Assembly (NCBI RefSeq): GCF_020866905.1
Contig: NZ_JAIVCC010000016.1
Location: 124,001-188,000 of the forward strand
Length of the DNA stretch: 64,000 nucleotides
Reading direction: 5' to 3'
DNA from: Salinimicrobium sediminilitoris
GTDB taxonomy: Bacteria; Bacteroidota; Bacteroidia; Flavobacteriales; Flavobacteriaceae
Below, piece after piece: positions 13,049-63,968 of the stretch. Positions within the stretch are counted from its first letter, which is position 1; each line of letters opens with the position of its first letter. Both the position numbers and the translations under genes were made by a program. The notes under the pieces are model-generated. The model saw only the letters and a list, made by a program, of their open reading frames with translations. It did no database searches and was not told where the DNA came from.

Positions 13049-13111
13049 TGGTTGTTGTTAATTGCTAATTGGCTCCTGATAATTGGTTATTGTTAATTGT
13101 TAATTGTTAAT
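13049..13111. repeat. Degenerate heptamer array upstream of hemW
   Basis: Nine consecutive 7-base units with no phase break: four exact copies of TGTTAAT plus TGGTTGT, TGCTAAT, TGGCTCC, TGATAAT and TGGTTAT. The array runs directly into the hemW start codon (the next heptamer contains it). See the findings for the wider family. Confidence 0.9.
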
Positions 13112-13113
13112 TG

Positions 13114-14235
13114 ATGTATATACACATTCCATTTTGTAAACAAGCCTGTCACTACTGTGATTTTCATTTCTCGACTTCCGTAAAAAAGAAACCGGAAATG
13201 GTGGAGGCCATTTGCAAAGAACTTCAGCTGCGAAAAAGTGAAATTTCGGACGAGGTGGAGACGATCTATTTTGGAGGGGGAACTCCGTCGTTACTTTCTG
13301 CTGAAGAATTGCAGCAGATCTTCACTGTTATTCATGACCAGTTTAAGGTCACTAAAGATCCGGAAATCACTTTGGAAGCTAACCCCGATGATCTCTCAGA
13401 AGAAAAATTAAAGATGCTGGCAGCTTCTCCTGTGAACCGGCTGAGTATTGGAGTGCAGTCATTTTTTGAAGCAGACCTGAAACTGATGAACCGGGCACGT
13501 AATTCAGCTGAAGCTTTGGAGTCGATTAAGATGGCAAAAAGGTATTTTGAGAATATCTCCATTGATCTCATTTACGGTATCCCCGGGATGAGCAACGATC
13601 GCTGGAGGGAAAATCTCAATATTGCCCTTGAGCTTGGAGTTCCACATATTTCCAGTTATGCCCTCACCGTTGAACCGCGAACGGCATTGAAAAGCATGAT
13701 CGAAAAAGGGAAGGTCGCTCCGGTAGAGGAAGAGGCTGCAAAAGAGCAGTACGAGATCATGATCGACATCTTATCTGCTGCCGGCTTCGACAATTATGAA
13801 TTCTCCAACTTCGGAAAACCCGGCTACTTTTCCCGGAACAATACCGCATACTGGTTTGGGAAACCTTATCTGGGGATAGGGCCTTCGGCACACTCTTTTG
13901 ATGGATTTCACAGAAAATGGAATGTTAGTAATAACACACTCTACATCAAGGCGCTTCAAAAAGGGGAAATTCCGGCAGAGGTTGAGAAACTTTCTGTTTC
14001 AGACCGGTACAACGAACTTGTTATGACCCGCCTGCGAACCAGGTGGGGGATTTTAGTAGATGAGGTGGAAAGGAGCTTTGGGAAAAAATATAAAGATTAC
14101 CTGCTTCGGGAAGCTGCCGCTTTAGTTGATAGCGGAATGCTGGAGTGGGATCAGGAAAGGCTGCAGGTTTCCAAAAAAGGGAAATTTTTGAGTGATGGTA
14201 TTGCCTCGGAGCTATTTTGGGTGGAGGAGAACTAA
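13114..14235 (+). CDS. hemW: HemW-type radical SAM protein (haem chaperone)
   Basis: 373 residues from ATG 13114; a TTG one codon earlier is also possible but weaker. The radical SAM cluster motif is Cys8-x3-Cys12-x2-Cys15 (FCKQACHYCDF), followed by YFGGGTPSLL (SAM-binding Gly motif), EANPDDL, RLSIGVQSF and DLIYGIPGM. The later RNNTAYW...GIGPSAHSF segment is typical of HemW and distinguishes it from true oxygen-independent coproporphyrinogen oxidase HemN, whose extra N-terminal region is absent. By family HemW binds haem and helps insert it into cytochromes. The gene ends tail to tail with the toxin gene (3-base overlap). Confidence 0.92.
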   Translation: MYIHIPFCKQACHYCDFHFSTSVKKKPEMVEAICKELQLRKSEISDEVETIYFGGGTPSLLSAEELQQIFTVIHDQFKVTKDPEITLEANPDDLSEEKLKMLAASPVNRLSIGVQSFFEADLKLMNRARNSAEALESIKMAKRYFENISIDLIYGIPGMSNDRWRENLNIALELGVPHISSYALTVEPRTALKSMIEKGKVAPVEEEAAKEQYEIMIDILSAAGFDNYEFSNFGKPGYFSRNNTAYWFGKPYLGIGPSAHSFDGFHRKWNVSNNTLYIKALQKGEIPAEVEKLSVSDRYNELVMTRLRTRWGILVDEVERSFGKKYKDYLLREAAALVDSGMLEWDQERLQVSKKGKFLSDGIASELFWVEEN

Positions 14236-14543
14236 ATCTTCTTTAAAAACCGGAGTAATTTTGCAGGATCCTTTCTGTTATCCCAAAAACCGGTAATAAA
14301 AATTTTAGGCAGATTAATTTTGTAAATGATACTGTAATGCCTCAAAATTAAGACGCGGGAATAGGGAAAACTAGTTGGCTTACCTACCTCCGGATTTGAT
14401 CTAAGAATTTCAAGCCTTTCCCTTATTGCGAGGTTTAATTTTCGGGAATAGTTGGTATTTTCATTTCTCTCGTTCCAGTACTGAAAGACTTCATCTCTCT
14501 GTGCTTTAGCCGTAAAAGTCCAGAGGATTTCTATTTCATCCAT
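14232..14543 (-). CDS. RelE/ParE family toxin
   Basis: 103 residues with the RelE/ParE fold signature: FTAKAQRDEVFQYW at the start, a helical middle (AIRERLEILRSNPEVGKP), then YSRVLILRHYSIIYKI and IFITGFWDNRKDP, the beta-hairpin and catalytic/binding C-terminus of the family. By family it is an mRNA interferase or a gyrase poison, neutralised by the antitoxin encoded just upstream. Its start overlaps the antitoxin frame by 13 bases, which is typical of translationally coupled toxin-antitoxin pairs. Confidence 0.9.
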   Translation of the reverse strand: MDEIEILWTFTAKAQRDEVFQYWNERNENTNYSRKLNLAIRERLEILRSNPEVGKPTSFPYSRVLILRHYSIIYKINLPKIFITGFWDNRKDPAKLLRFLKKI

Positions 14544-14764
14544 TCGTCGTCCTGTTTCATCAAATCTTTTTCAGAAATAAGTCTATCCTCTTTGATGTCC
14601 ACTTCACTCATTTGAAGCATCTCAATTTGTTCAGAAGTTAAATTTATCTCTTCCTTCTCCTGAGTAGCGCTAAAAAGAACTTCAATGGCATTTAATAGCT
14701 GTTCATTTTCGCTTACCATAATCCGATCGATCAGTCTACTTTTTATTTTTTGAATTGTATCCAT
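14531..14764 (-). CDS. Antitoxin partner of the RelE/ParE toxin
   Basis: 77 residues, acidic, helical, with a short N-terminal segment (MDTIQKIKSRLIDRIM) followed by a region rich in Glu and a C-terminal tail (EKDLMKQDDEWMK) that would wrap the toxin. It is upstream of and overlaps the toxin gene, the usual antitoxin-first order. It resembles the short addiction-module antitoxins of Bacteroidota; no clear DNA-binding motif is visible. Confidence 0.85.
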   Translation of the reverse strand: MDTIQKIKSRLIDRIMVSENEQLLNAIEVLFSATQEKEEINLTSEQIEMLQMSEVDIKEDRLISEKDLMKQDDEWMK

Positions 14765-14934
14765 TGCCTTCTCTAATTAATTCCGCCTAGTAAAGATAAT
14801 AATTATTAAAGGTTTAAACTTTAAATACTATTGATTGAGACTTCTATCCCTAGGAAAGATTGTTCTTTGGAATAGTAAATATTGATAATCAGAAAAACGT
14901 TCTATTTTTACAACATCCCAAAGTAACATTTTCA

Positions 14935-16073: not shown

Positions 16074-16079
16074 AGTTCT

Positions 16080-16087
16080 TATCTTTG
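16080..16087 (+). promoter_or_regulatory. Putative -7 element TATCTTTG before the MmcQ/YjbR gene
   Basis: Matches TAnnTTTG and ends 4 bases before the ATG at 16092. The expected transcription start would then fall at or just inside the start codon, a leaderless arrangement like that at 1153. Confidence 0.4.
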
Positions 16088-16091
16088 GGCT

Positions 16092-16454: not shown

Positions 16455-18227
16455 ATGCAGGATCCCGCCATTTTTTATAATACCCAGATAGAGAAATATC
16501 GTAGTCAGCTTCATGCTGCTTCCCGCAAACTAGGTTTATCCAGTTTATTGCGACTCCTTATATTTTTGGCGGTGGCCTATGCTGTTTACGCCTTTTGGGG
16601 AAATTCTACTGCTGTTATTGCTTCCATTCTTGTTGGGATCGCAATCTTCATACTTCTTGTTTCCCGGCATTCCGATCTGCGGTACGAGCGGGATAAGTTC
16701 CGGGAGTTAATAAGGATCAATGAGACCGAGCTGGAGGTCCTTAAGAGGAATTTTCATCAATTACCCACAGGAACTGAGTTCGCCGATCCATTACATCCAT
16801 ACAGTCAGGATATTGATCTCTTCGGAAAAGGTTCCTTTTTTCAGTATTTGAATCGTACCACGCTTTTGGAAGGAAAGGATAAACTTGCGCAACTGCTGAT
16901 TTCAAATGATATTGATAATATCAACCTGAAGCAGGATGCTGTAAAAGAGCTGGCTGAAAAAGCCGACTGGCGACAGAATTTCTCTGCCCTGGCCACGCTT
17001 GTAAAAACTGAATCAAGAACAGCTGTAATAACGGGCTGGCTTAACAACTACAAAGGTTTTGTTCCCGGCCTTATGAAGTGGCTTCCTTTACTTTTCTCTA
17101 CCATTTCGGGGATTGTCATAGCTGCTTATTTTCTTGATTTGATTGGGGGAATTGAACTGGCGTTATGGTTTTTTGCAGGCCTGCTCATCACAGGATTTTT
17201 CCTAAAGCGCATTAACCTGCTCTCTTCCAGTGTAAGCAAGGTGCAGGATACTTTTCACCAGTATTACCAATTGCTCGGCCTTATTGAGAACACCACTTTT
17301 GAATCTGAATTGCTACGGAAGAACAAGGATGAGATAGCTTCCGAAAAACAGAAGGCTTCTGCCATCCTTAAGAAATTTTCCAAAGCTATAGATTCTTTGG
17401 ACCAACGCAACAACATGATCTTTGGAGTTCTTGGGAATGGTTTTTTGCTGTGGGACCTGTGTTATTCCTGGAAACTGGAAAAGTGGATCCAGGAACATGG
17501 ACAGGTGGTCCAAAAATGGTTCCGCGCGATAGAATTTCTGGATGCCTATAATTCCCTTGGGAATTTTGCCTTCAATCATCCCGCTTATGTTTTTCCCGAA
17601 CTGCATCACGACTCCCATATTTCTGATGCCACTCAACTCGCACATCCTCTTTTAGATCCCCAAAAGCGGATTGCCAATAACTTTTCTATAGAAAAAGAAC
17701 AATTTTTCATCATCACGGGTGCGAACATGGCCGGGAAAAGCACCTTTTTAAGAACCGTAAGCCTGCAGATCCTCATGGGGAATGTTGGCCTTCCGGTTTG
17801 TGCCACTTCCTGTCATTACACACCTATAAAGCTTATCACCAGTATGCGTACAACAGACTCGCTTACAGATGATGAATCCTATTTCTTTTCTGAATTAAAG
17901 CGACTGAAGTTTGTAGTGGACGAGATCAAAACCGATAAATATTTCATTATTCTCGATGAGATCCTGAAGGGAACTAACAGCACGGATAAGGCAATCGGCT
18001 CGAGAAAATTCATTGAAAAGCTCGTTCGCTCCAATTCCACCGGAATTATCGCTACTCATGATCTTAGCCTTTGTGAAGTGACAGAAGAGCTGCCGCAGGT
18101 AAAAAACTACTATTTTGATGCCGAGATCATCAACGACGAATTAAATTTCGACTACCGCTTTAAGGAAGGCGTTTGCCAAAATATGAATGCTTCTTTCCTG
18201 CTGAAAAAGATGGAAATTGTGGACTGA
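16455..18227 (+). CDS. MutS-like ATPase with N-terminal membrane helices
   Basis: 590 residues. Unlike true MutS it lacks the mismatch-recognition domain. It begins with a pair of hydrophobic helices (about residues 28-68), has another hydrophobic pair at about 210-250, and then a MutS core with lever/clamp helices and a C-terminal ABC-type ATPase: Walker A GANMAGKST (about residue 420), a conserved MRTTDSLTDDES stretch, Walker B FIILDEILKGTNS and IIATHDLSL. This matches the Bacteroidota MutS-related family often found beside MmcQ. It is probably membrane-attached; its DNA substrate, if any, is unknown. A heptamer array begins at its stop codon. Confidence 0.88.
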   Translation: MQDPAIFYNTQIEKYRSQLHAASRKLGLSSLLRLLIFLAVAYAVYAFWGNSTAVIASILVGIAIFILLVSRHSDLRYERDKFRELIRINETELEVLKRNFHQLPTGTEFADPLHPYSQDIDLFGKGSFFQYLNRTTLLEGKDKLAQLLISNDIDNINLKQDAVKELAEKADWRQNFSALATLVKTESRTAVITGWLNNYKGFVPGLMKWLPLLFSTISGIVIAAYFLDLIGGIELALWFFAGLLITGFFLKRINLLSSSVSKVQDTFHQYYQLLGLIENTTFESELLRKNKDEIASEKQKASAILKKFSKAIDSLDQRNNMIFGVLGNGFLLWDLCYSWKLEKWIQEHGQVVQKWFRAIEFLDAYNSLGNFAFNHPAYVFPELHHDSHISDATQLAHPLLDPQKRIANNFSIEKEQFFIITGANMAGKSTFLRTVSLQILMGNVGLPVCATSCHYTPIKLITSMRTTDSLTDDESYFFSELKRLKFVVDEIKTDKYFIILDEILKGTNSTDKAIGSRKFIEKLVRSNSTGIIATHDLSLCEVTEELPQVKNYYFDAEIINDELNFDYRFKEGVCQNMNASFLLKKMEIVD

Positions 18228-18260
18228 AGTTAGACTTTAGAAGTACGATTTTAGAAGGGA
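18226..18260. repeat. Heptamer array at the MutS-like gene stop
   Basis: Five 7-base units of the GAAGTTA/GACTTTA/GATTTTA type starting inside the TGA stop codon. Confidence 0.8.
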
Positions 18261-18394: not shown

Positions 18395-18422
18395 TTGAAC
18401 CTTGAATTTTGAATCTTGAATT
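18395..18422. repeat. Heptamer array before the 18428 gene
   Basis: Four 7-base units (TTGAACC, TTGAATT, TTGAATC, TTGAATT) ending 5 bases before the ATG at 18428. Just upstream, 18360-18383 holds a GTCGAGCGAAGTCGAG near-palindrome, another intergenic element. Confidence 0.85.
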
Positions 18423-18427: not shown

Positions 18428-19429
18428 ATGGATAGTTTAACTCAAATAGTACTCGGTGCGGCAGTAGGCGAAGCAGTTCTTGGACGTAAAGTGGGGAATA
18501 AAGCGATGTTGTATGGAGCCATTGCCGGTACCATCCCCGATCTCGATGCACTTGCAGGAAATTTTACAGACACTATTACTGCGATCGAGGTCCATAGAGG
18601 ATTTTCACATTCCATAGTTTTTGCAGTACTGGCAGCACCTGTTTTTGGTTACCTTATCTCCAGGATCGAAAGGAAGAGCGGCTTAGGCTGGAAAGACTGG
18701 TCATGGCTTATGTTCTGGGGACTGTTCACACACCCTATTCTCGATTCATTCACGACCTGGGGAACGCAGCTATTCTGGCCGCTGGACATAAGGCTTGCAT
18801 TTAAAAGCATCTTTGTAATTGACCCTTTATATACCCTTCCCTTTCTTACTTTTCTCATTCTGGCCATGCGCAGGAAAAAAGAGGATCCAAAAAGGGCAAA
18901 ATTCAATCGTTTTGGTTTAATAGTAAGTACGGGTTATTTAATGCTTACCCTGGTTTTAAAATTCACGGCTCATCAACAGTTTAAAGAAAGCCTGGAGCAG
19001 CAGGGAATGTTTTATTCCCGGCTTGATACACGTCCCACGCCTCTTAATACCATTTTATGGGCGGCCAATGCCGAAGCAGAGAACGATTTTCTCATTGGCT
19101 ATTATTCTTTTTTTGATGAGGAGATGATAAGGTTTGAGGCGGTGCCAAAGAACTGGCATTATCTTGGGAGTCTCAAAAAGGATAAAAATGTGCAACGTTT
19201 AATTGAAATCTCAAAAGGCTGGTACACCATTTCAGAAAAGGACGGATTTTTATATTTTAATGACCTGCGTTTCGGAAAGCTGAATCCTTCAGACGAAGAT
19301 TCGAACTTCGCCTTTAGCTATAAGCTAATTCCGGAGGGAGGGACCATAAGGGCTGAAGAAGAGCCGAAAAGTCCTGGCGATGGAAAACAGATCCTTCTTG
19401 ATCTTTGGGAAAGGATCAAGGGTAATTAA
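18428..19429 (+). CDS. YdjM/DUF457-type membrane-bound metal-dependent hydrolase
   Basis: 333 residues. Starts MDSLTQIVLGAAVGEAVLG, then GAIAGTIPDLDAL and HRGFSHSIVFA: the Asp and His residues are the metal-binding signature of the family. THPILDSFTTWGTQLFWP adds the second motif. About five membrane helices lie in the first 185 residues, with a soluble C-terminal domain of about 140 residues. By family it is an inner-membrane hydrolase of unknown substrate. No operon partner: the next gene is 55 bases away on the same strand. Confidence 0.88.
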   Translation: MDSLTQIVLGAAVGEAVLGRKVGNKAMLYGAIAGTIPDLDALAGNFTDTITAIEVHRGFSHSIVFAVLAAPVFGYLISRIERKSGLGWKDWSWLMFWGLFTHPILDSFTTWGTQLFWPLDIRLAFKSIFVIDPLYTLPFLTFLILAMRRKKEDPKRAKFNRFGLIVSTGYLMLTLVLKFTAHQQFKESLEQQGMFYSRLDTRPTPLNTILWAANAEAENDFLIGYYSFFDEEMIRFEAVPKNWHYLGSLKKDKNVQRLIEISKGWYTISEKDGFLYFNDLRFGKLNPSDEDSNFAFSYKLIPEGGTIRAEEEPKSPGDGKQILLDLWERIKGN

Positions 19430-21197: not shown

Positions 21198-21251
21198 TTA
21201 AGACAGGAGATCGCTGCGCTGCTAGAATCAAGAACCAAGACTAAAAATTCA

Positions 21252-21583
21252 CGCTATCAAAATTTGGAAACAGAGCTGGCGCGGATCTGTGATCCGTGAC
21301 GAGTTTTATTCTTTTTTTGTACTCAGCACGGATTGCAAATCTGCGCTATCAAAATTTGGAAACAGAGCTGGCGCGGATCTGCGATCCGTGACGTGATTTC
21401 AATTGAGTTAACTCAGCACGGATTGCAAATCCGCGCTATCGAAATTTGGAAACAGAGTTGGCGCAGATCTGTGATCCGTGACGTGATTTTAATTGAGTTA
21501 ACTCAGCACGGATTACAAATCCGCGCTATCGTAATTTGAGAATGGGTTGGCGCAGATCTGTGATCCGTGACGGTTATGCTATC
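21252..21583. repeat. Tandem REP-like repeat, ~90-bp unit, about 3.5 copies
   Basis: The landmark CGCTATC recurs at 21252, 21344, 21434 and 21524, giving a 90-92 bp unit in direct tandem; the fourth copy is partial. Each unit holds two small palindromes, CGGATCTGTGATCCG and CGGATTGCAAATCCG, and the second, read on the other strand, resembles the first, so each unit is itself a large imperfect inverted repeat. This resembles REP/BIME-type elements. No transposase gene is in the window. An apparent 68-codon frame through the array reflects the unit length being a multiple of three. Confidence 0.9.
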
Positions 21584-47080: not shown

Positions 47081-47305
47081 CTATGCTTTTGAACGGGAAT
47101 CTTTCAAAGATGTCTGTTTCTCATCCTTTATCCCGAATTTCTTCAGAATGTCCTCCATCAAACACCAGCGGGTCATTGAAGATTGCAATAAGTTCACCCC
47201 CACAAAGGCTGTAAACCAAAGCCAGTTGATGTTTACATATACTGCCAGTAAAAGGCTTATCAAAATAAATGTTCCGGCGATGCCGCGTATGACTCTGTTT
47301 AGCAT
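47081..47305 (-). CDS. DUF2892 (YgaP-like) inner-membrane protein
   Basis: 74 residues with two membrane helices: MLNRVIRGIAGTFILISLLLA and WLWFTAFVGVNLLQSSMTRWC, then the conserved CLMEDILKKFGI end. This is the YgaP membrane part without the rhodanese domain; the conserved Cys lies at the membrane surface. By family it binds or oligomerises in the membrane; the role is unclear, but it is often found in metal and sulphur stress clusters. It is the fifth gene of the efflux cluster. Confidence 0.88.
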   Translation of the reverse strand: MLNRVIRGIAGTFILISLLLAVYVNINWLWFTAFVGVNLLQSSMTRWCLMEDILKKFGIKDEKQTSLKDSRSKA

Positions 47306-47323
47306 AATCTTTAAATTTTAGTG

Positions 47324-47351
47324 TTAATTGTTAATTGATCATTGTTCATTG
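47324..47351. repeat. Heptamer array between efflux-cluster genes
   Basis: Four 7-base units (TTAATTG twice, ATCATTG, TTCATTG), ending exactly at the stop codon of the minus-strand gene at 47352. Confidence 0.85.
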
Positions 47352-47660
47352 TTAGATCGATTGTTCTATAGGTACTACCACCGCGCGAACGGGGTTATTG
47401 GTCTCCAGTTTATTATTGAATTCCCGTACATGATTAAAGAACTCGGTGATCTTCTCCTCATCTGTAAAAGAGAAAAACATGGAGGACTCGTTTCCTCCTT
47501 TTTCCCCGGGGAACCAGCTTTGAGTAGCGATTAGGGAATTCGTGTTTTTGTAGCCGTCAATTTCCGAAGAACTGAAGGCTTCGATTTTAGCTTTTTTGAA
47601 TAGTTTCAGAACATCCTTCTGGTATTCGGAAACTGTAGTGACTAATAATAGTTTCATCAT
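47352..47660 (-). CDS. PII-like small protein in RND efflux cluster
   Basis: 102 residues from the Met-Met at 47658-47660 (six more codons are possible). Pattern beta-alpha-beta: MKLLLVTTVSEYQKDVLKLF, a strand-turn (FSSSEIDGYKN), SMFFSFTDEEKITEFFNHV and the closing RAVVVPIEQSI. The fold reads like the PII/CutA/DUF3240 ferredoxin-like family, trimeric and usually a metal or nucleotide sensor. It sits between the RND pump gene and DUF2892, which fits a regulatory or metal-sensing role in the cluster. The family call is by pattern, not by strong motif. Confidence 0.7.
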   Translation of the reverse strand: MMKLLLVTTVSEYQKDVLKLFKKAKIEAFSSSEIDGYKNTNSLIATQSWFPGEKGGNESSMFFSFTDEEKITEFFNHVREFNNKLETNNPVRAVVVPIEQSI

Positions 47661-47672
47661 TATTGGTTTAAG

Positions 47673-47728
47673 GTTCAAAGTTTTCGGTTCTCAGTTCTCA
47701 GTTTTCGGTTCTCAGTTTTTGGTTAAGG
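47673..47728. repeat. Heptamer array, GTTCTCA type
   Basis: Eight 7-base units in unbroken phase (GTTCTCA three times, GTTTTCG twice, GTTCAAA, GTTTTTG, GTTAAGG), starting 12 bases upstream of the PII-like gene start. The rest of the 380-bp gap 47679-48058 holds short GC-rich inverted stretches and the array listed next, and no gene. Confidence 0.9.
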
Positions 47729-47993
47729 ATTTGTCCTAAATCTCTTTTTTCGTTTTGCCCCGTCCTAAAGGGAGCCGAAAAAAGTATTTTGATAAAAAGT
47801 TTTTATTTTTTCATTCCTGCGTACTTTTAAACACGTACTTCGTTTAATCCCCGGCCCCCAAAAGGGGGAGGAGGGGATTTTTTTAACTTTTTAAAGACAA
47901 CTGTTGCAACCGGGGCAGATCTCTCGTCGCATCTCCTTTCTGCCGAAAGAAGATGCTCTGTCGAGATGACATCGTGCAAATTTTAGAGTCTTC

Positions 47994-48053
47994 AAGTCAC
48001 AACCCGCAACCCGCAACCCGCAACTTGCAACCTGCAACCTGCAACCTGCAACC
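47994..48053. repeat. Heptamer array, AACCTGC type
   Basis: Eight full 7-base units plus part (AAGTCAC once, AACCCGC three times, AACTTGC once, AACCTGC three times), ending 5 bases before the stop of the RND permease gene. Confidence 0.92.
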
Positions 48054-52507: not shown

Positions 52508-52520
52508 TTTCTATGGTTTG

Positions 52521-52548
52521 TTGTTCGTTGTTTCTTGTTTGTTGTTCG
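52521..52548. repeat. Heptamer array, TTGTTCG type
   Basis: Four 7-base units (TTGTTCG twice, TTGTTTC, TTGTTTG), just upstream of the adaptor gene start. Confidence 0.85.
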
Positions 52549-52679
52549 GAGTTTTGTACTCTTCACTCCCTTTTTCCCCCCGCCCGATAGCTATCGGGAC
52601 TAAAGGGGGAGAAGGGCATTGTTATTCTAATTTTATTTTCGTTTCCTATTTACCTCTCGACTCCGCTTGAGGTGACACG

Positions 52680-52742
52680 TTGGAGCTTGGAATTTGGTGT
52701 TTGGTGCCTGGAATTTTTCCTGTCCACTGTCCACTGTCCACT
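52680..52742. repeat. Heptamer array, TTGGAAT-to-GTCCACT transition
   Basis: Nine unbroken 7-base units: TTGG-type words (TTGGAGC, TTGGAAT, TTGGTGT, TTGGTGC), then CTGGAAT and TTTTCCT, then GTCCACT three times, ending at the TolC gene stop. Two word families share one phase. The TTGGAAT words are the complement of the AAATTCC words at 60469 and 63165. Confidence 0.92.
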
Positions 52743-52744
52743 CT

Positions 52745-54061: not shown

Positions 54062-54602
54062 TTCTTAAATTTTATGGTACAAAAGTACTCTCAGAATTGG
54101 GCGTGGTCAGTAACCATTGTTACCAAGTGTTAAAACTCTCCCGGAAGTTTATTTTAATAGGAGAGGAGGATCGAGGGGGGAAGACGGTGACTTAGAAGCT
54201 GTGATATTTCATAGGCCTCCTTTTAAAGCTCCTTTAAAGGTCTGGACTTTTTTGAAGAAAAAGAATGACATATGTCAGCATGCCGGAGTAGAATTGCGGC
54301 TGCACTTTGAAGCTAAAGTAATCTTAGAGAAGGTGGTGGGCAGTAAGAATGGTTAACTGCCGGTGTGGGATTAGTTATAGAAGGGGTGTCAAAAATGGGT
54401 TTTTTGGCGTGGGGATATTGGGAAGGAGATTTCGGGCCTGATTAGGTGAGATTTCTAGTATTTGTCAACGGTTTCAATTATCGCAAGTTGGCGGATTTGG
54501 GGAGGAGGCTTTGCCGACTTAGACTTGGTTTGTTGGTGAATTTAATTATTTTCTTACTAGCGGTGCCGTCTATTTGCGATGAATAGTTGTTAGCTGTAGG
54601 CC
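54062..54602. other. Gene-free stretch between the efflux cluster and the defence pair
   Basis: About 540 bases. A 79-codon frame at 54117-54356 has no recognisable family and poor composition, so I do not call it. No strong hairpin or repeat apart from the array that follows. Confidence 0.5.
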
Positions 54603-54623
54603 ATTACTCATTACTCATTACTC
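54603..54623. repeat. Heptamer array at the helicase gene stop
   Basis: Three exact units ATTACTC followed by a degenerate AATACTA. The array runs into the stop codon (54618-54620) of the minus-strand helicase gene. Confidence 0.85.
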
Positions 54624-56576
54624 AATACTAATTACATTTTCAACTCCAAACCAGTCTTTAGCTTTTACTATAACTTCATCACTTGGACTATGAAAGAAAA
54701 CTGCTAAATTTTCTTTGGCTCTCGTACAGCAAACGTAAAATATCTTTTGTGTTCTATCCATTACAGATTCAGAGGCTGTGCCTAAAAACATTTTTTCAAA
54801 ATTGTAATTATTCCAACCACCATTATCGAGAAGCACTAGGATATTGTCCAATTCTGCTCCTTTAGTTTTATGTTGTGTTGAAAAGGGTGTTTGCCCTTCT
54901 AAATATTCATATAACTTTTGAAATTCGCTAAATTTGACATCTTTCACACGATTATACAAATACTCCTTTTTCTCTTTAAAATCATTTAGCTTATCATCAA
55001 TAATACAAATACCCTTCTCATTAGCATCAGTAATTACTTCCTCAATTGTCTTATCGCCTACTGCAATGAGGCTTTCAATATTTTCTTTTAAAGTTCTTTT
55101 GCTGGCTATGCTAGTAATTTTATAACGAAAATCTGTTGCTCTCAAAAACTCGTTATATCTCTTATTTTGATATAAGGAAATATTATTTTGAATTTTGAAT
55201 AAGTGTTTAATCAAACTATCTCTTTTTGAGTCTTTCTTATTCTCATCATCCTCATCTTGTTTTTTATCATCAAGCAGTTGGTCCTTATCAACGTAGATTT
55301 TTGAAAATTTAGAGTAATTTAAAGTTTTGGCATAATTGAACAATTCTTCATTATCATCAATAAAGGCTTGCATAGTATTAGTAGGACTTACTTTTTTCAA
55401 ATCCGGCCCTGTTTTTCCTTGCTGTAAAGTATTAATTACTTCCCCAAAACTATTTTCAGAAAAATCTGTTGAAATTCCTTTGTCTTTTATGTAATTTTTA
55501 ATTCTGTCTTTAAAACTTAAAATATGATCTTTGTCGTAAATAAGCATTAATGATTTAAAACCCGCTTTTCCAGCTATTAAATTGTGGGTAAGATTCAGTT
55601 CCTTTGTATCTTTTGAATTTTTAAAATCCCAACCATAATTTACTTCCAGAAATTTTTCAACTTTACTAATATCATTATCATTAGAATGCAAAAACAATAG
55701 AGTACCCGGCTTTACTACACCTTCTTCCATATTGGGTGCATTGGGATCGGTAGAAGGTTCTTGAGTAATCCCGTCAGTCCGAAGTTTATTTGCCAAATCA
55801 ATAATGAGTTGGGGATTTCTTCTATTTTGTTTCTTTGCAATTTTCTTAATTACATCATCATCATATGCATCTAAATTCCCGACAGTATCTGGATAAATGT
55901 TTTGCATAGCATCCCCAAAAAAACCTATTATATTTTTCCTTTTACTTTTTTTAAAATGAGTTAGGAATGTTTCCACAACCATCCCACTAGTATCTTGATA
56001 CTCATCTAAAAAAATGAATTTGTATTTATCTTTTACGACACTATTAAGTTTAGGGTATTTCTGAAAGAGATAATTTGCAACAATAATTAACTCATCATGA
56101 GAGATTATACCTTCTCTTATCCTTACAAATTCTTTGTATTTTATTTTTTCTTCTAGGTCATCAAAAAAATTATCTGGTACAGGATTTAAATCATTAATTT
56201 TTATTCTAGTAATATTTTCATCGTTTGCCAGTGTTATAATAGCCTCTTTAAGCTCTTTTTGAAAGTGCTTAATGTTATCCCATAGGAAGTCGTGGATGGT
56301 TGATACATTAAGGTTTTTGTGATTTACTCTTTCTTCGATTTCCTTTACTGCGGCATTAGTGTATGTCATACAGGCAACTTTAATAGTTGGATTTTCAGCT
56401 ATTACCTGACGAATAACACTTACCAAAGAGTAAGTCTTACCACTTCCTGCACCTCCACTTAGAAGAAAGTTTTTCCCATCATCAATTAATTTAAAAATTT
56501 CCCGCACTTCAGGCTCTAACTCTAATCTTCCTTCAACCATAGTAAGCCATTTTTGATGTACTCTGGAATATTCCAA
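54618..56576 (-). CDS. gajB: UvrD/Rep-like helicase, GajB-type partner of the OLD nuclease
   Basis: 652 residues from 56576, or 640 from the Met at 56540. SF1 helicase motifs: Walker A GGAGSGKT (residues 41-48), motif Ia TYTNAAVKE, motif II DEYQDT (191-196), a GDAMQNIY motif III-type segment, motif V STQHKTKGAELDNI and motif VI VCCTRAKENLAVF. It starts inside the 3' end of the OLD nuclease gene (overlap 19-55 bases), so the two are coupled. A UvrD-like helicase beside an OLD-type nuclease defines the Gabija antiphage system. It is longer than the first described GajB (about 500 residues). The coding DNA is clearly AT-richer than its neighbours. Confidence 0.85.
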   Translation of the reverse strand: MEYSRVHQKWLTMVEGRLELEPEVREIFKLIDDGKNFLLSGGAGSGKTYSLVSVIRQVIAENPTIKVACMTYTNAAVKEIEERVNHKNLNVSTIHDFLWDNIKHFQKELKEAIITLANDENITRIKINDLNPVPDNFFDDLEEKIKYKEFVRIREGIISHDELIIVANYLFQKYPKLNSVVKDKYKFIFLDEYQDTSGMVVETFLTHFKKSKRKNIIGFFGDAMQNIYPDTVGNLDAYDDDVIKKIAKKQNRRNPQLIIDLANKLRTDGITQEPSTDPNAPNMEEGVVKPGTLLFLHSNDNDISKVEKFLEVNYGWDFKNSKDTKELNLTHNLIAGKAGFKSLMLIYDKDHILSFKDRIKNYIKDKGISTDFSENSFGEVINTLQQGKTGPDLKKVSPTNTMQAFIDDNEELFNYAKTLNYSKFSKIYVDKDQLLDDKKQDEDDENKKDSKRDSLIKHLFKIQNNISLYQNKRYNEFLRATDFRYKITSIASKRTLKENIESLIAVGDKTIEEVITDANEKGICIIDDKLNDFKEKKEYLYNRVKDVKFSEFQKLYEYLEGQTPFSTQHKTKGAELDNILVLLDNGGWNNYNFEKMFLGTASESVMDRTQKIFYVCCTRAKENLAVFFHSPSDEVIVKAKDWFGVENVISIE

Positions 56577-58600: not shown

Positions 58601-58761
58601 GATTTTAAATATTCCTAGATGATTTTACGGCTTACAGCAAACGTCCTATATCACTTAAATCCTCAGTTATTATCGAATTCAGCGGCGGGATAACAGCAGG
58701 ATTTGTGGTTCTTCCGTAAATCTATTAAAATTCTGTTAAAGGAAGTTACGGGAAACCGTAA

Positions 58762-59211
58762 AATCAACGACCAATTATCAATGAACAGTGAACAGAAATT
58801 CTTCTTGGCCGGGAGATTTTTCTGTCGCCCAAAACCTTATTGAAAATGACATTTTTGGCACCTTTTCTTTGTGAGCTTAGTGTGAAAGTAGTCGGGAGAC
58901 TTTAGACGGTAGTCAGTAGTTGAGATTTGACTACGTCGAAGCTGCGCTTTCTCAGTCGCAAAAAAGCTCCTTCGAAATGACATTTTGAGCAAATCCCAAA
59001 TTACAAGTACCAAATACCAAAATTGATTTGAAAATGTGAGGGTTTGAAAATTTGAAAATGAGAGGAAGAGGAGTATGATTAAAAAAAATATCTGTGCATC
59101 CGTGGCTTTTTAAATAGACGAGAGACGGTAGGAGGTAGTCGTAGTTGAGATTTTTAAGTCCCAAAAAAGCTCCTCTGCCCGTCCGGCAGGTGGGTTCAAA
59201 ATGACATTTTT
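58762..59211. repeat. Composite intergenic repeat block 1
   Basis: Fills most of the 778-bp gap between the defence pair and the alcohol dehydrogenase. In order: heptamer array 58762-58796 (GACCAAT, TATCAAT, GAACAGT type); spacer with AAAATGACATTTT at 58843; heptamer array 58887-58921 (AGTAGTC, GGGAGAC type); dispersed element without insert 58948-58988 (TTTCTCAGTCGC...TTCGAAATGACA); heptamer array 58991-59018 (AAATCCC, AAATTAC, AAGTACC); octamer array 59035-59074 (ATTTGAAA type); heptamer array 59115-59149; partial dispersed element with the 21-base insert 59161-59211. No gene seen. Confidence 0.85.
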
Positions 59212-59378
59212 AGCCCTCAATATAAATCCACTCTCGCGTCGCAGCACTGGGCTTCAGCATTACATGTTATTTGTTTAAGGCATAACGGGCTACAAAATTT
59301 TTTTTCAGAACTACGCTCCTATGCCGGGTCCAGATGTCCTTTCTTTTATTTAACTTAGATAAATTTAACTTATTGATT

Positions 59379-60434
59379 ATGAGTAAAGTAAAATCGTTTG
59401 CGGCCCGGGAAGTGGGAGCACCGCTCAAACCCTTTGAAATTGAGAGAAGAGCGGTACATGAAAATGATGTCCTTATTGACATTGAATACTGCGGCGTATG
59501 TCATTCAGATCTTCATTTCGTAAGGAATGACTGGGGAATGTCTGAATATCCTCTTGTACCCGGGCATGAAATTATTGGAAGGGTAGTCCAGGTGGGTGAA
59601 AAAGTGAAAGACTTTAAAGTCGGTGAAAAGGTAGGAGTGGGCTGCATGGTCGATTCCTGCAGGGAATGTAGCGCCTGTGATGAAGGGCTGGAGCAGTATT
59701 GCGAAAGAGGTTCGACTTTTACTTACAACGGGCCCGACAAATATTTAGGCGGAATGACCTTTGGCGGATATTCACAAAAAATTGTGGTCGATAAGGATTT
59801 TGTTCTTCATGTTCCTGAACATCTGGACAGCAAAGCTGCTGCACCTCTGCTCTGTGCGGGGATCACCACATACTCTCCTCTTAAGTACTGGAATGTGAAG
59901 AAAGGGGATAAAGTAGGAGTTATCGGCCTCGGTGGACTTGGGCACATGGGAGTCAAATTTGCCAGTGCCATGGGAGCCGAGGTGGTGATGATCACTTCCT
60001 CTCCTTCAAAGACAAAAGATGCCGAAGAATTGGGTGCAGACCATGTGCTCATCTCAACAGATGAAGGACAAATGGCAAGTCACGCCAATACCTTTGAGTT
60101 CTTGCTGAATACCATTCCGGTAGGTCATGATGTGAATCCTTATGTGAGCCTTTTAAAACGCGACGCTACCATGGTGATAGTGGGAGCAGTAGAACCGGTT
60201 GACCCCGTTCACGGTGGACAATTGATCTTCCAGAGAAAAAGTATTGCAGGTTCGTTGATTGGCGGGATCAAAGAGACCCAGGAAATGCTGGACTTTTGTG
60301 GAGAACACAATATTGTCTGCGATGTTGAAATCATTCCTATGCAGGACATCAATACTGCATATGAGAGAATGCTAAAGAGCGATGTGAAATACAGATTCGT
60401 TATTGATACTAAATCTCTGGAGAGAGAAAATTGA
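59379..60434 (+). CDS. Zinc-dependent NAD(P) alcohol dehydrogenase, CAD/YahK-like
   Basis: 351 residues from ATG 59379; the frame continues 15 codons upstream but without family similarity. Catalytic zinc ligands Cys41 (CGVCHSD), His63-Glu64 (PGHE) and the Cys in LLCAGITTY; structural zinc Cys94, 97, 100 and 108. Rossmann nucleotide motif GLGGLGHMGVKFA. This is the cinnamyl-alcohol-dehydrogenase/YahK group, usually NADPH-dependent aldehyde reductases with broad substrate range. Monocistronic, flanked by repeat blocks on both sides. Confidence 0.92.
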   Translation: MSKVKSFAAREVGAPLKPFEIERRAVHENDVLIDIEYCGVCHSDLHFVRNDWGMSEYPLVPGHEIIGRVVQVGEKVKDFKVGEKVGVGCMVDSCRECSACDEGLEQYCERGSTFTYNGPDKYLGGMTFGGYSQKIVVDKDFVLHVPEHLDSKAAAPLLCAGITTYSPLKYWNVKKGDKVGVIGLGGLGHMGVKFASAMGAEVVMITSSPSKTKDAEELGADHVLISTDEGQMASHANTFEFLLNTIPVGHDVNPYVSLLKRDATMVIVGAVEPVDPVHGGQLIFQRKSIAGSLIGGIKETQEMLDFCGEHNIVCDVEIIPMQDINTAYERMLKSDVKYRFVIDTKSLEREN

Positions 60435-60461
60435 TCTTCAAAAAGATCCAAAAACTAGGTT

Positions 60462-60626
60462 CAAGCACCAAATTCCAAATTCCAAATTCCAAAAGTGGAA
60501 ATTGGGGATTGGTTAATTAGTGATTAGTTAATCGGATTAGATTGTCAAAAAAAAGTTTCCCGAAGATATGCGTGATCTTCGGGAAAGATTTTCAATTTGC
60601 ATTGATCAATAACCAATGGACAGGAT
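60462..60626. repeat. Composite intergenic repeat block 2
   Basis: Heptamer array of eleven units (60462-60538: AAGCACC, AAATTCC three times, AAAAGTG, GAAATTG, GGGATTG, GTTAATT, AGTGATT, AGTTAAT, CGGATTA). Then a 12-bp-stem hairpin (60556-60567 with 60575-60586) around ATGCGTG, which may also end the upstream transcript. Then a second array 60592-60626 (TCAATTT, GCATTGA, TCAATAA type). The hairpin and following array recur at 62179-62244. The rest of the gap to 60813 holds no gene. Confidence 0.9.
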
Positions 60627-60812
60627 TTCTTCGGGGCCTGGAGATTTTTCAGTGGCGGAAAAACTTTTGACAATTTAATATTCCGGGACTTAAGGTGAAA
60701 CCAACCCCTAATTCGTTCTTCTTCATGACAAATCTCATTGTTCCTGGTTTTGATAGTTCTTAATTTGATTTGTCCATAAAACCTTTTAGGGGTTAATTAA
60801 AAAACAATAGCA

Positions 60813-61436
60813 ATGAGAAATTTTAATTGTACAAATCTACATCAGCGCAACGGAAAAGGTTTTTTCGTTTTATTGCTGATCGTTATGTTCTGGTTTGCGG
60901 GCTCGCAGGATGTTTATGCTCATTGTGACAGAGAGAATGGGCCTGTGGCAGTTGCTGCAAAAGATGCTTTAAAGACCGGAGATTTTAAAAAGATCCTGAT
61001 TTGGGTAGGTGAAGATCAGGAGCAGGAGTTGCGGGAGAAATTTCAGCAGAGTCTTGAAGTTTTCCAAAATGGAGGAAAGTCAGCTCAATTGGCGGAGAAG
61101 TACTTCATGGAAACCGCGGTTAGATTACACCGTGCGGCAGAAGGAATGCCCTTTGAAGGCCTTAAACCGGCCAGTCCTAATCCACCTGATATAGAAAGTG
61201 CGGAGAGTGCATTGGAAACCGGAGACTTTGAGCCGGTCAAAGTTTTGCTGTGTGAAAAATTAGAAAAGGAAGCACTAAAGTGGTTCGAGGAGACCAGGGC
61301 TAAAGCAGAAAATAAGGATGACAGTGTTGCTGCAGGAAGAGTTTGGGTAAACAACTATGTTAAATATATTACTTATATCCATACCCTTTATAAGGCAATC
61401 GAGGCAGGACCGCCACACGGCGTTGATGTACACTAG
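60813..61436 (+). CDS. DUF6448-like exported protein
   Basis: 207 residues. Signal-like hydrophobic segment at about 17-34, then HCDRENGPVAVAAKDALKTGDFKKILIWV: the AHCD...GPV start of the mature protein is typical of a Bacteroidota family that I recall as DUF6448 (moderate certainty). The rest is helical, with FMETAVRLHRAAEGMPFEGLKP and a second repeat-like half (ESALETGDFEPVKVLL), ending GPPHGVDVH. His and acidic residues at the mature N- and C-termini could bind metal. Function unknown. Confidence 0.75.
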   Translation: MRNFNCTNLHQRNGKGFFVLLLIVMFWFAGSQDVYAHCDRENGPVAVAAKDALKTGDFKKILIWVGEDQEQELREKFQQSLEVFQNGGKSAQLAEKYFMETAVRLHRAAEGMPFEGLKPASPNPPDIESAESALETGDFEPVKVLLCEKLEKEALKWFEETRAKAENKDDSVAAGRVWVNNYVKYITYIHTLYKAIEAGPPHGVDVH

Positions 61437-61570
61437 GTCACTAAGTGGAAATGTTTAAACATTCCTCAATAGTGGAAGACCGGTTCATCAATGGAAATTG
61501 GAGATTCACGAATTCCGGAAGAAATAGAAAGCTATGAGTAAAAAGAACAGAGACCGTTGTTAAAGCATGA

Positions 61571-62383
61571 GATTTCTCAGTCGCAGAAATGCTCCCCTGC
61601 CCGTCCGGCAGGCGGGTTCGAAATGACATTTTTAGAAAAAATTTCAAATTCAAGCACCAAATTTTTACCCGCCGGAGCTTTTTAGCGGAGGAGGGCCAAA
61701 ATGTTCTGTTCTCGATACAAATCCGCCCCTGCTCCCGCAGGTCCGGATTCACCTTCCTAGCGGCAGGCAGGCTCGAACTGACGGGGAATAATTCTCAATT
61801 CAACCTGTATATTTTCGAGATTTTAAGCGGCCTATCGAAAATTGATCGTCAAATTCGAAGTGAGATGACGTTTAAATTTTCTGCTGTTTGAGCGAAACGC
61901 ACCTTTATCGTCCTAAAAATTTTTCCCGCGAGTTCAGAAAATTTAGGCATTGAACGAAAAATTTAGATCCATTTTCGTAAGCCTAGATTTTTTGGTTCTT
62001 TTTCATCAATGGAAAAAGAACAGGAGATAAAGATTTCTCAGTCGCAAAAATGCTCCCCTGCCCGTCCGGCAGGCGGGTTCGAAATGACATTTTTAAAAAA
62101 ATCCCAAATTACAAGCACCAAATTTCAAATTAGTTAATTGGGGATTGGTCAAATAGTTAATGGAGATTAGTCGTTCTGCGAAGATATGCGTGATCTTCGG
62201 GAAAGATTTTCAATTAGCAATGATCAACTAATAATGAACAGAATTTTCTTAATGGACTTTGCAGATTTTCTTTGGGGCCTTTGCGTGAAAATAGTTAGTA
62301 GTCAGTTGATTTAGACAATAATCATCAGTCAGAAATAAGATTTCTCAGTCGCTAAAAATAGCTCCTTCGAAATGACATTTTGA
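61571..62383. repeat. Composite intergenic repeat block 3
   Basis: Most of a 960-bp gap. In order: dispersed element with 21-base insert 61571-61634 (insert 61596-61616); degenerate AAATTTC/AAGCACC words 61638-61665; a decayed GC-rich stretch 61735-61790; an unassigned stretch; dispersed element with insert 62032-62094; heptamer array of ten units 62099-62168; hairpin region 62179-62204; heptamer array 62210-62244; spacer ending TTTGCGTGAAA; heptamer array 62291-62332 (ATAGTTA, GTAGTCA type); dispersed element without insert 62339-62383. Apparent frames in it are low-quality. Confidence 0.85.
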
Positions 62384-62396
62384 TAAGCTGTTTGTC

Positions 62397-62876
62397 CTAT
62401 TCTACCTCCTCGCCTGAACCGGGAATCGATTCCGGCCAACCTTTCTTGTAGTCTTCCCTGGACTTCTTATAGTTTTCGGCAAGCTCTTCGCTCTCTTTTT
62501 GGGTGTAGACCTTTTTTGCCTTTCCAAAGAATTCCTCCTCCTCGTCCTCCAAATGGTGGTGCACCTTATCGCTCAATTTCTTCATGGTTGCCAGCCAGTG
62601 AGGAGAATCCATTTTAGTGGCCTCCAGTTCCTGAATAAGTTCATCGATCTCATGGTGCTCTGCCATCCCATGACGTGCATCTTCCTGCATGCTGTCGGTG
62701 TCAATGAGGGGTGAATAAAAGTAGCGTTCTTCGGCTACTTCATGGACTTCCAATTCTTTTCTAAGCTCAGGCCAAAGCTCTTTACGCTCTTTAGACTCCC
62801 CCGAAGTTTTTAATAATTTGTCACAAAGATCTCTTTGTATATCGTGGTCTTCCTTAATTGCTTTGTAGATGTTCAT
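62397..62876 (-). CDS. Hemerythrin-domain protein
   Basis: 159 residues. The HHE pattern is complete: KEDHDIQRDLCDKL (His11), HEVAEERYFYSPL, HGMAEHHEIDELI and HHLEDEEEEFFGKAKKV give the His and Glu/Asp ligands of a di-iron site in a four-helix bundle. By family it binds O2 or NO, or stores iron, in the cytoplasm; in many bacteria it protects from oxidative stress. The C-terminus (GWPESIPGSGEEVE) is an extra short tail. Monocistronic. Confidence 0.93.
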   Translation of the reverse strand: MNIYKAIKEDHDIQRDLCDKLLKTSGESKERKELWPELRKELEVHEVAEERYFYSPLIDTDSMQEDARHGMAEHHEIDELIQELEATKMDSPHWLATMKKLSDKVHHHLEDEEEEFFGKAKKVYTQKESEELAENYKKSREDYKKGWPESIPGSGEEVE

Positions 62877-63032
62877 CGTGTTAGAAAGTTTATAGTTGGT
62901 AAGGCTTTTTGATCAGGTTTTTCCTGAAAATCCTAATTTACCCATTTTTGGCCAAATGCCGCGTGTGCAGATGGATCTTTCGTAGAGATTTAGCTGAATT
63001 TATTGTTTTCCGGAAAAATTCTGTGGCATTTT

Positions 63033-63251
63033 TCAATTAACAATGATCAATTAGCAATGAACAGGATTTCTTTGTAAGAAATTTTCATAGCACATGATGA
63101 GATTTCTCAGTCGCAAAAAGCTCCCCTGCCCGTCCGACAGGCGGGTTCGAAATGATATTTTTAAAAATTCCAAATAACAAGCGCCAAATTCCAATTTGAG
63201 ACAAAAATCTTCGCGGCCTTTGCTGATCTTCTTTGCGGCTTTGCGTAAAAC
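63033..63251. repeat. Composite intergenic repeat block 4
   Basis: Heptamer array 63033-63067 (TCAATTA twice, ACAATGA, GCAATGA, ACAGGAT); dispersed element with insert 63101-63163 (one base changed in the insert, ATATTTT ending); heptamer array 63165-63192 (AAATTCC twice, AAATAAC, AAGCGCC); then GCGGCTTTGCGTAAAAC, related to the TTTGCGTGAAA spacer of block 3. It fills the 433-bp gap between the hemerythrin and GNAT genes. No gene. Confidence 0.88.
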
Positions 63252-63309
63252 ATTTGAAGCCAAACATGAAATTTTCCGTGGCCTCTTTTTTTTTCAGGTG
63301 TGAGATTTT

Positions 63310-63876
63310 TTACTTCCTCAAAAAATCCTTCTCCAGCAAAGAATAGATCTCGCTGTCCAGGAACTTTCCATTGTAGTAATAATTCTCCCTGAAGTAAGCC
63401 TCCTTTATAAAACCCATTTTTAGGAGGAGGGCGCGGGAGGTGTCATTAGCGGGATTGATATTGGCTTCGATGCTATGGAGAGCGAGGTCATTAAATCCAA
63501 AAGAGATCACTGCACGCATGGCTTCTTTCATATAACCGTGGCCCCAGTAATCGGGATGAAGGGTGTAGCCAATCTCGGCGCGGGCATTGGTCCTGTCGAT
63601 CTTGTGTAAAATGATATCTCCCATAAAATTTCCGGACTCCCTCTCCGTGATCACCCAGAAAAATCCGCTTTTCTTTTCATAGGTTTCGAGGTTCCTTCCT
63701 ATAAAAGCTTCCGAAGTTTTAGTATCAAGATGCTTATCTGAATCCATGAATTTCATCACTGCATCGTTGGAACGCAATTGCTGCAGCGAAGCCGCATCCT
63801 TCAGCTCCTGCTTCCGAAGAAACAGCCTTTGGGTCTTTAGCTGGGGAAATTCCTGAAAATATTGCTCGTTGATCAT
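63310..63876 (-). CDS. GNAT family N-acetyltransferase (RimJ/RimL-like)
   Basis: 188 residues. Starts with LKTQRLFLRKQELKDAASL, then FFWVITERESGNFMGDIILHKI, AEIGYTLHPDYWGHGYMKEAM (acetyl-CoA loop) and ANINPANDTSRALLLKMGF, the order and motifs of the RimJ/RimL group. By family it acetylates a protein N-terminus or a small amine; the substrate is unknown. Stand-alone gene. Confidence 0.93.
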   Translation of the reverse strand: MINEQYFQEFPQLKTQRLFLRKQELKDAASLQQLRSNDAVMKFMDSDKHLDTKTSEAFIGRNLETYEKKSGFFWVITERESGNFMGDIILHKIDRTNARAEIGYTLHPDYWGHGYMKEAMRAVISFGFNDLALHSIEANINPANDTSRALLLKMGFIKEAYFRENYYYNGKFLDSEIYSLLEKDFLRK

Positions 63877-63947
63877 AAGGAGATAAAGATAATGTTAATC
63901 CAATTTGAAGTTGTGGTGATTTGAAAATTTGATGATGAAGGGAAAAA

Positions 63948-63968
63948 GTGGTCAGTGGTCGGTGGTCA
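63948..63968. repeat. Heptamer array, GTGGTCA type
   Basis: Three 7-base units (GTGGTCA, GTGGTCG, GTGGTCA). The same words occur as GTGGTCA, GTGATCG at 8915-8928, directly at the stop codon of the lipoprotein gene. Upstream, 63909-63940 holds octamer words (ATTTGAAA, ATTTGATG). Confidence 0.85.

What the first reader, a model, noticed from the sequence alone, without database searches (positions are those of the whole stretch)
13049..63968. Degenerate tandem arrays with a strict 7-base period in over twenty intergenic sites
Seen directly: at least 21 spots hold 3-11 consecutive heptamers in unbroken phase. Examples: 8915, 12611, 13049, 18226, 18395, 47324, 47673, 47994, 52521, 52680, 54603, 58762, 58887, 58991, 59115, 60462, 60592, 62099, 62210, 62291, 63033, 63165, 63948. 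Each has its own word family (TGTTAAT, TTGAATT, GTTCTCA, AACCTGC, TTGTTCG, GTCCACT, ATTACTC, AAATTCC, TCAATTA, GTGGTCA), and neighbouring units differ by one to three bases, so the period is kept while the word drifts. In 52680-52742 two word families share one phase. Many arrays start or end exactly at a stop codon; one ends at a start codon. Simple slippage would give exact copies; keeping phase through heavy divergence suggests an active templated or iterative process, or selection for the 7-base period. Cyanobacterial heptanucleotide STRRs are the nearest known comparison. I know of no described function in this group.
Basis: partly seen in the sequence, partly recalled or inferred. Interest (0 to 1): 0.85.

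Follow-up and report, generated by a model that had tools for sequence, protein, structure and literature searches.

The report
Seven-base repeats capping gene ends
In this marine bacterium, short DNA words repeated every seven bases sit at the ends of many genes and nearly always read away from the gene, which looks more like directional punctuation than random stutter, although what it does is unknown.

Summary
The seven-base arrays are real. The window lies in a Salinimicrobium genome (Flavobacteriaceae). In 1.92 Mb from four genomes of the genus, gaps between genes hold 132 lag-7 arrays against 7-24 at lags 5, 6, 8, 9 and 10.

The claim that each array has its own word fails: about ten word families recur.

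New facts: (1) 47% of arrays lie within 5 bp of a gene, 12% expected. (2) Near genes, words read outward at both ends: own genome 36 out/0 in after stops, 13/3 before starts; six species not used to define the words 63/6 and 21/0. The bias weakens farther off (64/43). (3) Variation concentrates in the same columns across loci in 5 of 7 families. (4) Arrays are rare at edges of divergent gaps (2 of 400). (5) Hairpin pairing within a gap is not supported.

Similar placement was reported for quadruplex-forming heptamers in Xanthomonas and Nostoc; here only 2 of 116 arrays could form one. Best reading: slippage-grown repeats kept as polar gene-end elements; a new variant of a known kind, function unproven.

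The parts
8914..8932 (+). AGTGGTC-family array at the 3' end of ORF 8436-8915
   Evidence: score 8, p 0.007
12616..12645 (+). CAATTAA-family array overlapping the 3' end of ruvC (12071-12628)
   Evidence: score 11, 0 of 400 shuffles; the script assigned it to the start at 12658, where it would count as inward; RuvC domain
13055..13113 (-). CAATTAA-family array upstream of ORF 13111/13198-14235 (start codon uncertain)
   Evidence: TRF period 7; score 22; orthologous arrays in G009 and G011
18228..18260 (+). GAAGTTA-type words after the stop of ORF 16455-18227; not significant alone
   Evidence: p 0.24 in the window; related words, by eye, at the orthologous place in G011
18395..18421 (-). ATTCAAG/GTTCAAG array just before ORF 18428-19429
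   Evidence: score 14
47305..47353 (-). CAATGAT/CAATTAA array at the 3' end of ORF 47352-47678
   Evidence: score 22; also in G011, G004 and G005, absent in G007
47665..47724 (+). GGTTTAA to GTTCTCA array at the 5' end of ORF 47352-47678
   Evidence: score 23; orthologous arrays in several congeners with changed words
47993..48053 (-). GGTTGCA/GGTTGCG array after the stop of the RND permease 48059-51304
   Evidence: score 42; orthologous arrays in several congeners
52516..52553 (+). GTTTGTT/GTTCGTT array upstream of the membrane-fusion gene 51425-52507
   Evidence: TRF; nearly identical in G007, other words elsewhere
52680..52742 (-). AGTGGAC then CCAAACA array, one phase, after the stop of the TolC-like gene 52745-54061
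   Evidence: score 20; same composite in G003 and G010, swapped in G011, lost in G007
54602..54635 (-). AGTAATG array overlapping the 3' end of gajB (54618-56576)
   Evidence: score 21; ORF limits; GajB
58765..58795 (+). CAATKAN array far from gene edges, in the divergent gap 58601-59378
   Evidence: p 0.003
60468..60528 (+). CCAAATT array 33 bp after ORF 59334-60434
   Evidence: score 24
63027..63063 (+). CAATTAA/CAATGAT alternating 14-mer array, mid-gap
   Evidence: score 12; TRF period 14
63947..63967 (+). AGTGGTC array 70 bp from the start of ORF 63310-63876
   Evidence: p 0.003

Best explanation
These are polar, gene-edge heptamer arrays. Shown: many sit at gene ends, near genes they read outward at both the 3' and the 5' edge, they use about ten recurring words, and most families keep a largely fixed core with two or three freer positions per unit. 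Inferred: arrays grow and shrink by tandem duplication in 7- and 14-base steps (strand slippage), words pass between gene ends by recombination or gene conversion, and the arrays that survive are those away from divergent promoters, in outward orientation and with an intact core. I think the likeliest reason for the polarity and the core is that a factor reads them in DNA or in nascent RNA as polymerase leaves a gene in either direction, that is, directional punctuation. No step of that function is shown.
For: Period and gene-edge position. Recurring words (genus-wide patterns against the pattern read backwards: 80/0, 143/4, 134/0, 114/6 and 309/38 register matches). Polarity: prediction written first, then 54 out/4 in within 60 bp of genes and 8/7 farther off, some of these loci lying in the stretches that gave the prediction; six species not used to define the families 63/6 and 21/0, pattern loci alone 38/4 and 11/0. 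Fixed and free columns, without pattern-chosen loci: 0 of 2000 permutations for 4 of 7 families, 0.03 for one, 0.09 and 0.15 for AGTG and CCAA. Persistence: of 110 matched gaps, 11 of the 17 with an array in G005 also hold one in G000 at 79% gene identity, and none of the other 93 does. Duplication: similarity decay, unit-number difference, 14-mer alternation. Array-bearing 3' edges in co-directional gaps have fewer terminator-like hairpins, 3 of 42 against 146 of 565 (p 0.005).
Against: No binding factor, transcript or phenotype is known. Several families in one genome would need several factors or one of loose specificity. G002 (one match) and G008 (none; 74% complete) do almost without the five words searched, so arrays are not essential. 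The terminator deficit could mean that the gaps lie inside operons, and it is absent in convergent gaps (6 of 23 against 75 of 223). In other Flavobacteriaceae the polarity was weaker: 17 out/8 in near genes; by likeness to Salinimicrobium words 31/15 near and 3/9 far. Core conservation could partly reflect recent copying from a shared pool. At 5' edges, general depletion of G in leaders may favour one orientation of most words.
Confidence: 0.42

Rival explanations
1. Neutral slippage plus tolerance: polymerase slips in 7-base steps, arrays accumulate wherever harmless, and polarity is a by-product of what each gene edge tolerates (G-poor leaders upstream, something similar downstream).
For: Arrays avoid the edges of divergent, promoter-bearing gaps (2 of 400 edges); upstream leaders are G-poor in general; slippage signatures; rapid turnover between species.
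Against: Downstream of stops the general G/C skew is near zero, yet polarity there is 162/9; CAATTAA and CCAAATT obey the rule there (26/3 and 15/1) although they carry more C than G in the outward strand; words recur and vary mainly in set columns.
Confidence: 0.33
2. The arrays are ends of dispersed mobile or REP-like elements copied between gaps.
For: Families recur; in gaps of 350 bp or more, 12 of 20 array gaps hold dispersed repeats against 11 of 61 others; Y1 transposase genes occur in 9 of 12 genomes of the genus.
Against: In gaps of 40-350 bp only 3 of 25 array gaps hold such repeats, against 21 of 385; spacers between arrays in G110 and G133 show no likeness by eye; G009 has words but no Y1 transposase match; flanks are little conserved.
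Confidence: 0.1
3. The two arrays of one gap pair as an RNA or DNA hairpin.
For: Outward polarity at both edges makes them inverted; paired arrays in distant genomes G110 and G133, which I chose as such pairs; in co-directional gaps arrays at both edges co-occur (23 against 2.9 expected, inflated by orthologous RND gaps).
Against: Same-gap complementarity is not above other gaps (24 gaps, p 0.79); same family in 9 of 26 two-edge gaps against 8.7 expected; duplex energy -31.8 against -32.4 for swapped pairs.
Confidence: 0.05
4. Fail-safe stop codons: units such as TGAGA/TTAGA or CAATGA put stops into all three frames after the gene.
For: In GAGA, CAAT and AGTATT families many allowed variants keep TAA, TAG or TGA (read by eye).
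Against: AAGA, AGTGGTC and GGTTGC words carry no stops; the same words lie antisense before starts. A paper reports no evidence for selected extra stops in eubacteria (PMC6764699, title and start of abstract in a search listing only).
Confidence: 0.04
5. A telomere-like or other templated 3'-end addition laid the same strand outward on both ends of DNA pieces carrying a gene.
For: Same strand polarity at both gene ends, fixed unit length and degenerate units; in the 4 genes with arrays on both edges mean likeness is 8.0 against 4.5 for other genes.
Against: Only 4 such genes, and their words are mixed; no enzyme candidate was sought; mid-gap arrays exist.
Confidence: 0.03

Closest known systems
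GGGAATC / GGGGA(C/T)T heptamer repeats of Xanthomonas and Nostoc (Rehm et al. 2015, PMC4692102; abstract, passages and the Discussion section seen)
   Different: One G-rich, quadruplex-forming word type there; about ten words here, only 2 of 116 arrays with four or more GGG or CCC runs, and column-structured degeneracy. The authors could not identify a role.
TAACTGA direct repeats of Beggiatoaceae, cyanobacteria and five Bacteroidetes (MacGregor 2015, PMC4679880; abstract, passages, sections 7 and 12 seen)
   Same: Period 7, mostly intergenic, mostly oriented toward a start codon (147 of 170 sets in its Table 1); in F. litoralis one set after a stop in reverse orientation, which fits outward polarity. 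Other heptamer repeats noted in the same gaps of Gramella and Aequorivita.
   Different: A single word there; related heptamers were reported as rarely or never repeated in the main genome. AGTTATC/AGTTGTC-type words here are close relatives of its reverse complement.
Long simple sequence repeats (Mrazek et al. 2007; not read, as described in passages of PMC4679880)
   Same: Heptamers the most abundant class in most genomes; slippage proposed, with 7 nt as a length touching the polymerase.
   Different: No polarity, word recurrence or core/free columns in that description.
Cyanobacterial STRRs (recalled; STRR fingerprinting named in the search listing of PMC5088731)
   Same: Heptanucleotide arrays (recalled).
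   Different: Not compared with sequence here.

Membership tests
GGGAATC-type G-quadruplex heptamer repeats | G-tracts able to form quadruplexes | tested here: not met
   2 of 116 arrays have four or more GGG or CCC runs; 27 have any
GGGAATC-type G-quadruplex heptamer repeats | outward polarity close to ORFs, rare between divergent ORFs | tested here: met
TAACTGA repeats | the word TAACTGA in tandem | not tested
   no count of this word was made; related AGTTATC/AGTTGTC words seen
Simple sequence repeats grown by slippage | tandem units whose number differs between relatives | tested here: met
   AGTATTG type 3 against 6 units; similarity decay
Simple sequence repeats grown by slippage | mutations spread evenly over the unit | tested here: not met
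   5 of 7 families reject it at p 0.03 or less without pattern-chosen loci; AGTG 0.09 and CCAA 0.15 do not
REP/MITE-like mobile elements | conserved body or termini shared by copies | tested here: not met
   flank information mostly below 0.35 bits past the first partial unit, a few positions to about 0.6; an AAGACTT end in 14 of 42 AAGA arrays is the exception
Intergenic hairpins | arms complementary beyond chance | tested here: not met

The most novel reading that the evidence does not exclude
Bacteria of at least three phyla carry a common, unrecognised class of polar punctuation: heptad-spaced recognition arrays that cap both ends of genes and read outward whatever the word, served by dedicated heptad-binding factors, with G-quadruplex heptamers and TAACTGA repeats as local dialects.
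Probability: 0.2. Interest if true: 0.88.

Novelty: new variant of a known kind. Interest (0 to 1): 0.63.

Why it matters
It argues against G-quadruplex formation as the general reason for the placement of heptamer repeats, because the same rule holds for words that cannot form one. It links scattered reports through a single testable rule (outward from the gene at both ends) and turns 'why seven?' into a question that reporter assays, pull-downs and comparative genomics can answer.

Tried and rejected
Hairpin between the two arrays of a gap: not supported in two tests. Base composition as the cause of polarity: not sufficient. A mid-gap palindrome or Y1 transposase anchor: weak. Defined element ends: only the AAGA family shows a hint. 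Same words on both ends of one gene: too few cases, 4. Stop codons as the unit's purpose: fails for several families. Cyanobacterial plasmid comparison: accession not held and a word query found nothing (low-complexity filtering may hide matches). Phylum-wide counts are only loosely specific: AGTGNTC matched 46 times in 11 of 296 genomes, its reversed control 16 times in 4; KAGAYDT matched in 35, but its reversed control matched in 26 by my count, largely because TAGATTT equals its own reversal.

Limits: gene calls are my own hexamer-based calls, not curated annotation; shuffles are approximate. Ortholog copies enter; pattern-chosen loci enter (column test) leaves the pattern loci out, and splits own genome from other species. 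In one search the RND-region stretches of the six species had been seen by eye before the families were fixed; the figures without them are 38/4 and 11/0. One search removed duplicate hits and set aside 9 that lay inside a called gene (4) or lacked a called gene on one side (5); one search set aside 35 hits inside called genes. Pattern counts are register matches, not distinct arrays; notebook entry 5 gives some of them slightly wrong, the figures here are recounted. The terminator comparison does not correct for gap length. That the polarity is unreported for such multi-word arrays rests on the searches only.
Full report
What the window is. Homologues of the RND permease at 48059-51304 place it in Salinimicrobium, Flavobacteriaceae (best named hits S. 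sediminis 98% and S. nanhaiense 96%); the own genome has 3.59 Mb in 18 contigs, the window being G000:C16:124001-188000, and 12 genomes of the genus are held.

The period is real and specific. In window gaps the plain lag-7 match fraction (0.297) barely exceeds other lags from 2 to 13 (0.269-0.296), but dense stretches occur 9 times at lag 7 and not once at any other lag from 2 to 13. With a segment score of 10 or more, gaps hold 11 (window), 50 (own contig C10, 795 kb), 9 (G007), 38 (G005) and 24 (G010) lag-7 arrays, 132 in all, against 7, 13, 24, 9 and 8 at lags 5, 6, 8, 9 and 10. Multiples 14 and 21 are also raised, shuffled gaps give 0-4, and coding sequence shows no excess at 7. Other Bacteroidota loci peak at 7 too.

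Words recur. Arrays from different gaps of one genome share words well above a null that permutes the seven columns of each array (148 against 35 same-orientation pairs). Genus-wide patterns against the same pattern read backwards give 80/0 (GAGAYDTK), 143/4 (AAGANNC), 134/0 (AGTGNNC), 114/6 (CAATKAN) and 309/38 (GTTYAAR) register matches in 12 genomes. Over these five searches G008 (74% complete) has none and G002 one, so the trait is patchy. Across 296 Bacteroidota genomes AGTGNTC occurs in 11 (reversed control in 4) and KAGAYDT in 35 (reversed control in 26, mostly a symmetric AT-rich form).

Position and polarity. Nearly half of the arrays hug gene edges: 47% within 5 bp, 12% expected. Reading away from the nearest gene, word orientation is consistent (flip test 102 against 0.4 with s.d. 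13, 0 of 5000; alignment by gene sense or plus strand scores 34 and 22). I wrote the predicted orientation of each family down and then tested four families genus-wide: 54 outward and 4 inward within 60 bp, 8 and 7 farther off; some loci lie in stretches already scanned. All held Salinimicrobium DNA gives 162/9 at 3' edges and 55/6 at 5' edges, ortholog copies included, and 64/43 farther than 60 bp. Own genome alone: 36/0 and 13/3. Six species not used to define the words: 63/6 and 21/0; their pattern loci alone 38/4 and 11/0. In that set 5' arrays 61-150 bp off still read outward (19/1), so the decay with distance is not uniform. Eight small stretches come from three genomes of other families, six of them (G110, G133) picked because plus and minus matches lay close together. 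In five of these six, arrays read into the gap from both sides at the gene edges; in the sixth (L374) the right-hand array falls inside the ORF as I called it; the two of G303 have a near-edge or 71-bp-off outward array on the left. Other Flavobacteriaceae loci are weaker, 17/8 near edges and 5/5 far.

Where arrays are not. Within 40 bp of gene edges, divergent gaps carry arrays at 2 of 400 edges, upstream edges of co-directional gaps at 27 of 607, downstream edges at 65 of 853. Two arrays of the window do lie in a divergent gap (58601-59378), but far from its edges. Array-bearing downstream edges in co-directional gaps show fewer terminator-like hairpins (3 of 42 against 146 of 565, p 0.005); in convergent gaps there is no clear difference (6 of 23 against 75 of 223).

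Structure of the unit. Without pattern-chosen loci, variation concentrates in the same columns across runs for AAGAGCC, CAATTAA, GTTTAAG, GAGATTT (0 of 2000 permutations each) and GTTGCGG (0.03), but not clearly for AGTGGTC (0.09) or CCAAATT (0.15). Free columns resemble their neighbours more than after within-run shuffling in AGTG (0.595 against 0.518, s.d. 0.022), GTTGC (0.697 against 0.590, s.d. 0.023) and, less, AAGA (0.487 against 0.419, s.d. 0.031) and GTTYAA (0.546 against 0.512, s.d. 0.020). CAAT alternates with a 14-base step (0.53 at one unit, 0.61 at two). GAGA shows nearly no neighbour effect (0.474 against 0.461). So duplication is at work, and something else keeps the core.

Evolution. 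At 94% gene identity (G000 against G007) 6 matched gaps have arrays in both, 1 in one only, 129 in neither. At 79% (G000 against G005) 11 both, 0 and 6 one-sided, 93 neither. Within shared gaps I see unit-number differences, unit exchange at nearly constant length, and wholesale word swaps such as AGAACCA for CAATTAA. At the TolC-side edge of the gap 52508-52744, nine genomes show, by eye, AGTGGAC-type words (five), AGTATT-type (two), AGTTGTC (one) or no array (one).

Reading. Simple slippage gives neither recurring words, fixed columns nor polarity. Pure tolerance explains the avoidance of promoters and perhaps the upstream polarity, but not the downstream polarity, where general composition is unskewed. 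I therefore favour arrays that grow by duplication and are kept as polar gene-end elements, with a transcription-exit role as the likeliest and unproven function.

Known work. Rehm et al. (PMC4692102) found the same placement for G-rich heptamers in Xanthomonas and Nostoc, under-representation between divergent ORFs, and changed lengths at the same gaps; they could not assign a role. MacGregor (PMC4679880) found TAACTGA sets mostly before start codons. Read outward, both fit the rule found here; that link is my inference from their text. What is added here is that the rule holds for many non-quadruplex words in one genome, with core and free columns, and in a few stretches of further families of Bacteroidota.

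Noticed in passing
window 54618-58600 (-): A Gabija defence pair: GajB (E 9.7e-236) and GajA (E 4.5e-280) by PADLOC models; a heptamer array overlaps the 3' end of gajB.
   Followed up: partly
window 30097-37392 (+): A 2431-codon ORF built of 159-bp (9.4 copies) and 426-bp (7 copies) internal repeats.
   Followed up: no
window 21245-21572: A 90-bp tandem repeat, 3.6 copies, 88% matches, between ORFs.
   Followed up: no
window 58600-63310: Long non-coding gaps share repeated segments containing AAATGACATTTT; palindromes like CAAAAATGNCATTTTTGA recur in gaps of the genome.
   Followed up: partly
window 16455-18227 (+): A 590-aa protein with a MutS-like C-terminal ATPase region, far below the MutS cut-off.
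   Followed up: no
genomes G003 and G004: Long runs of identical GTTTAAG units at several places, as if one word were expanding now.
   Followed up: no
genomes G002 and G008: Congeners almost without the heptamer words searched, useful for a gene-content contrast; G008 is only 74% complete.
   Followed up: no
L221, L238 and others: AAGANNC arrays often end in AAGACTT, a possible terminal unit (14 of 42).
   Followed up: no
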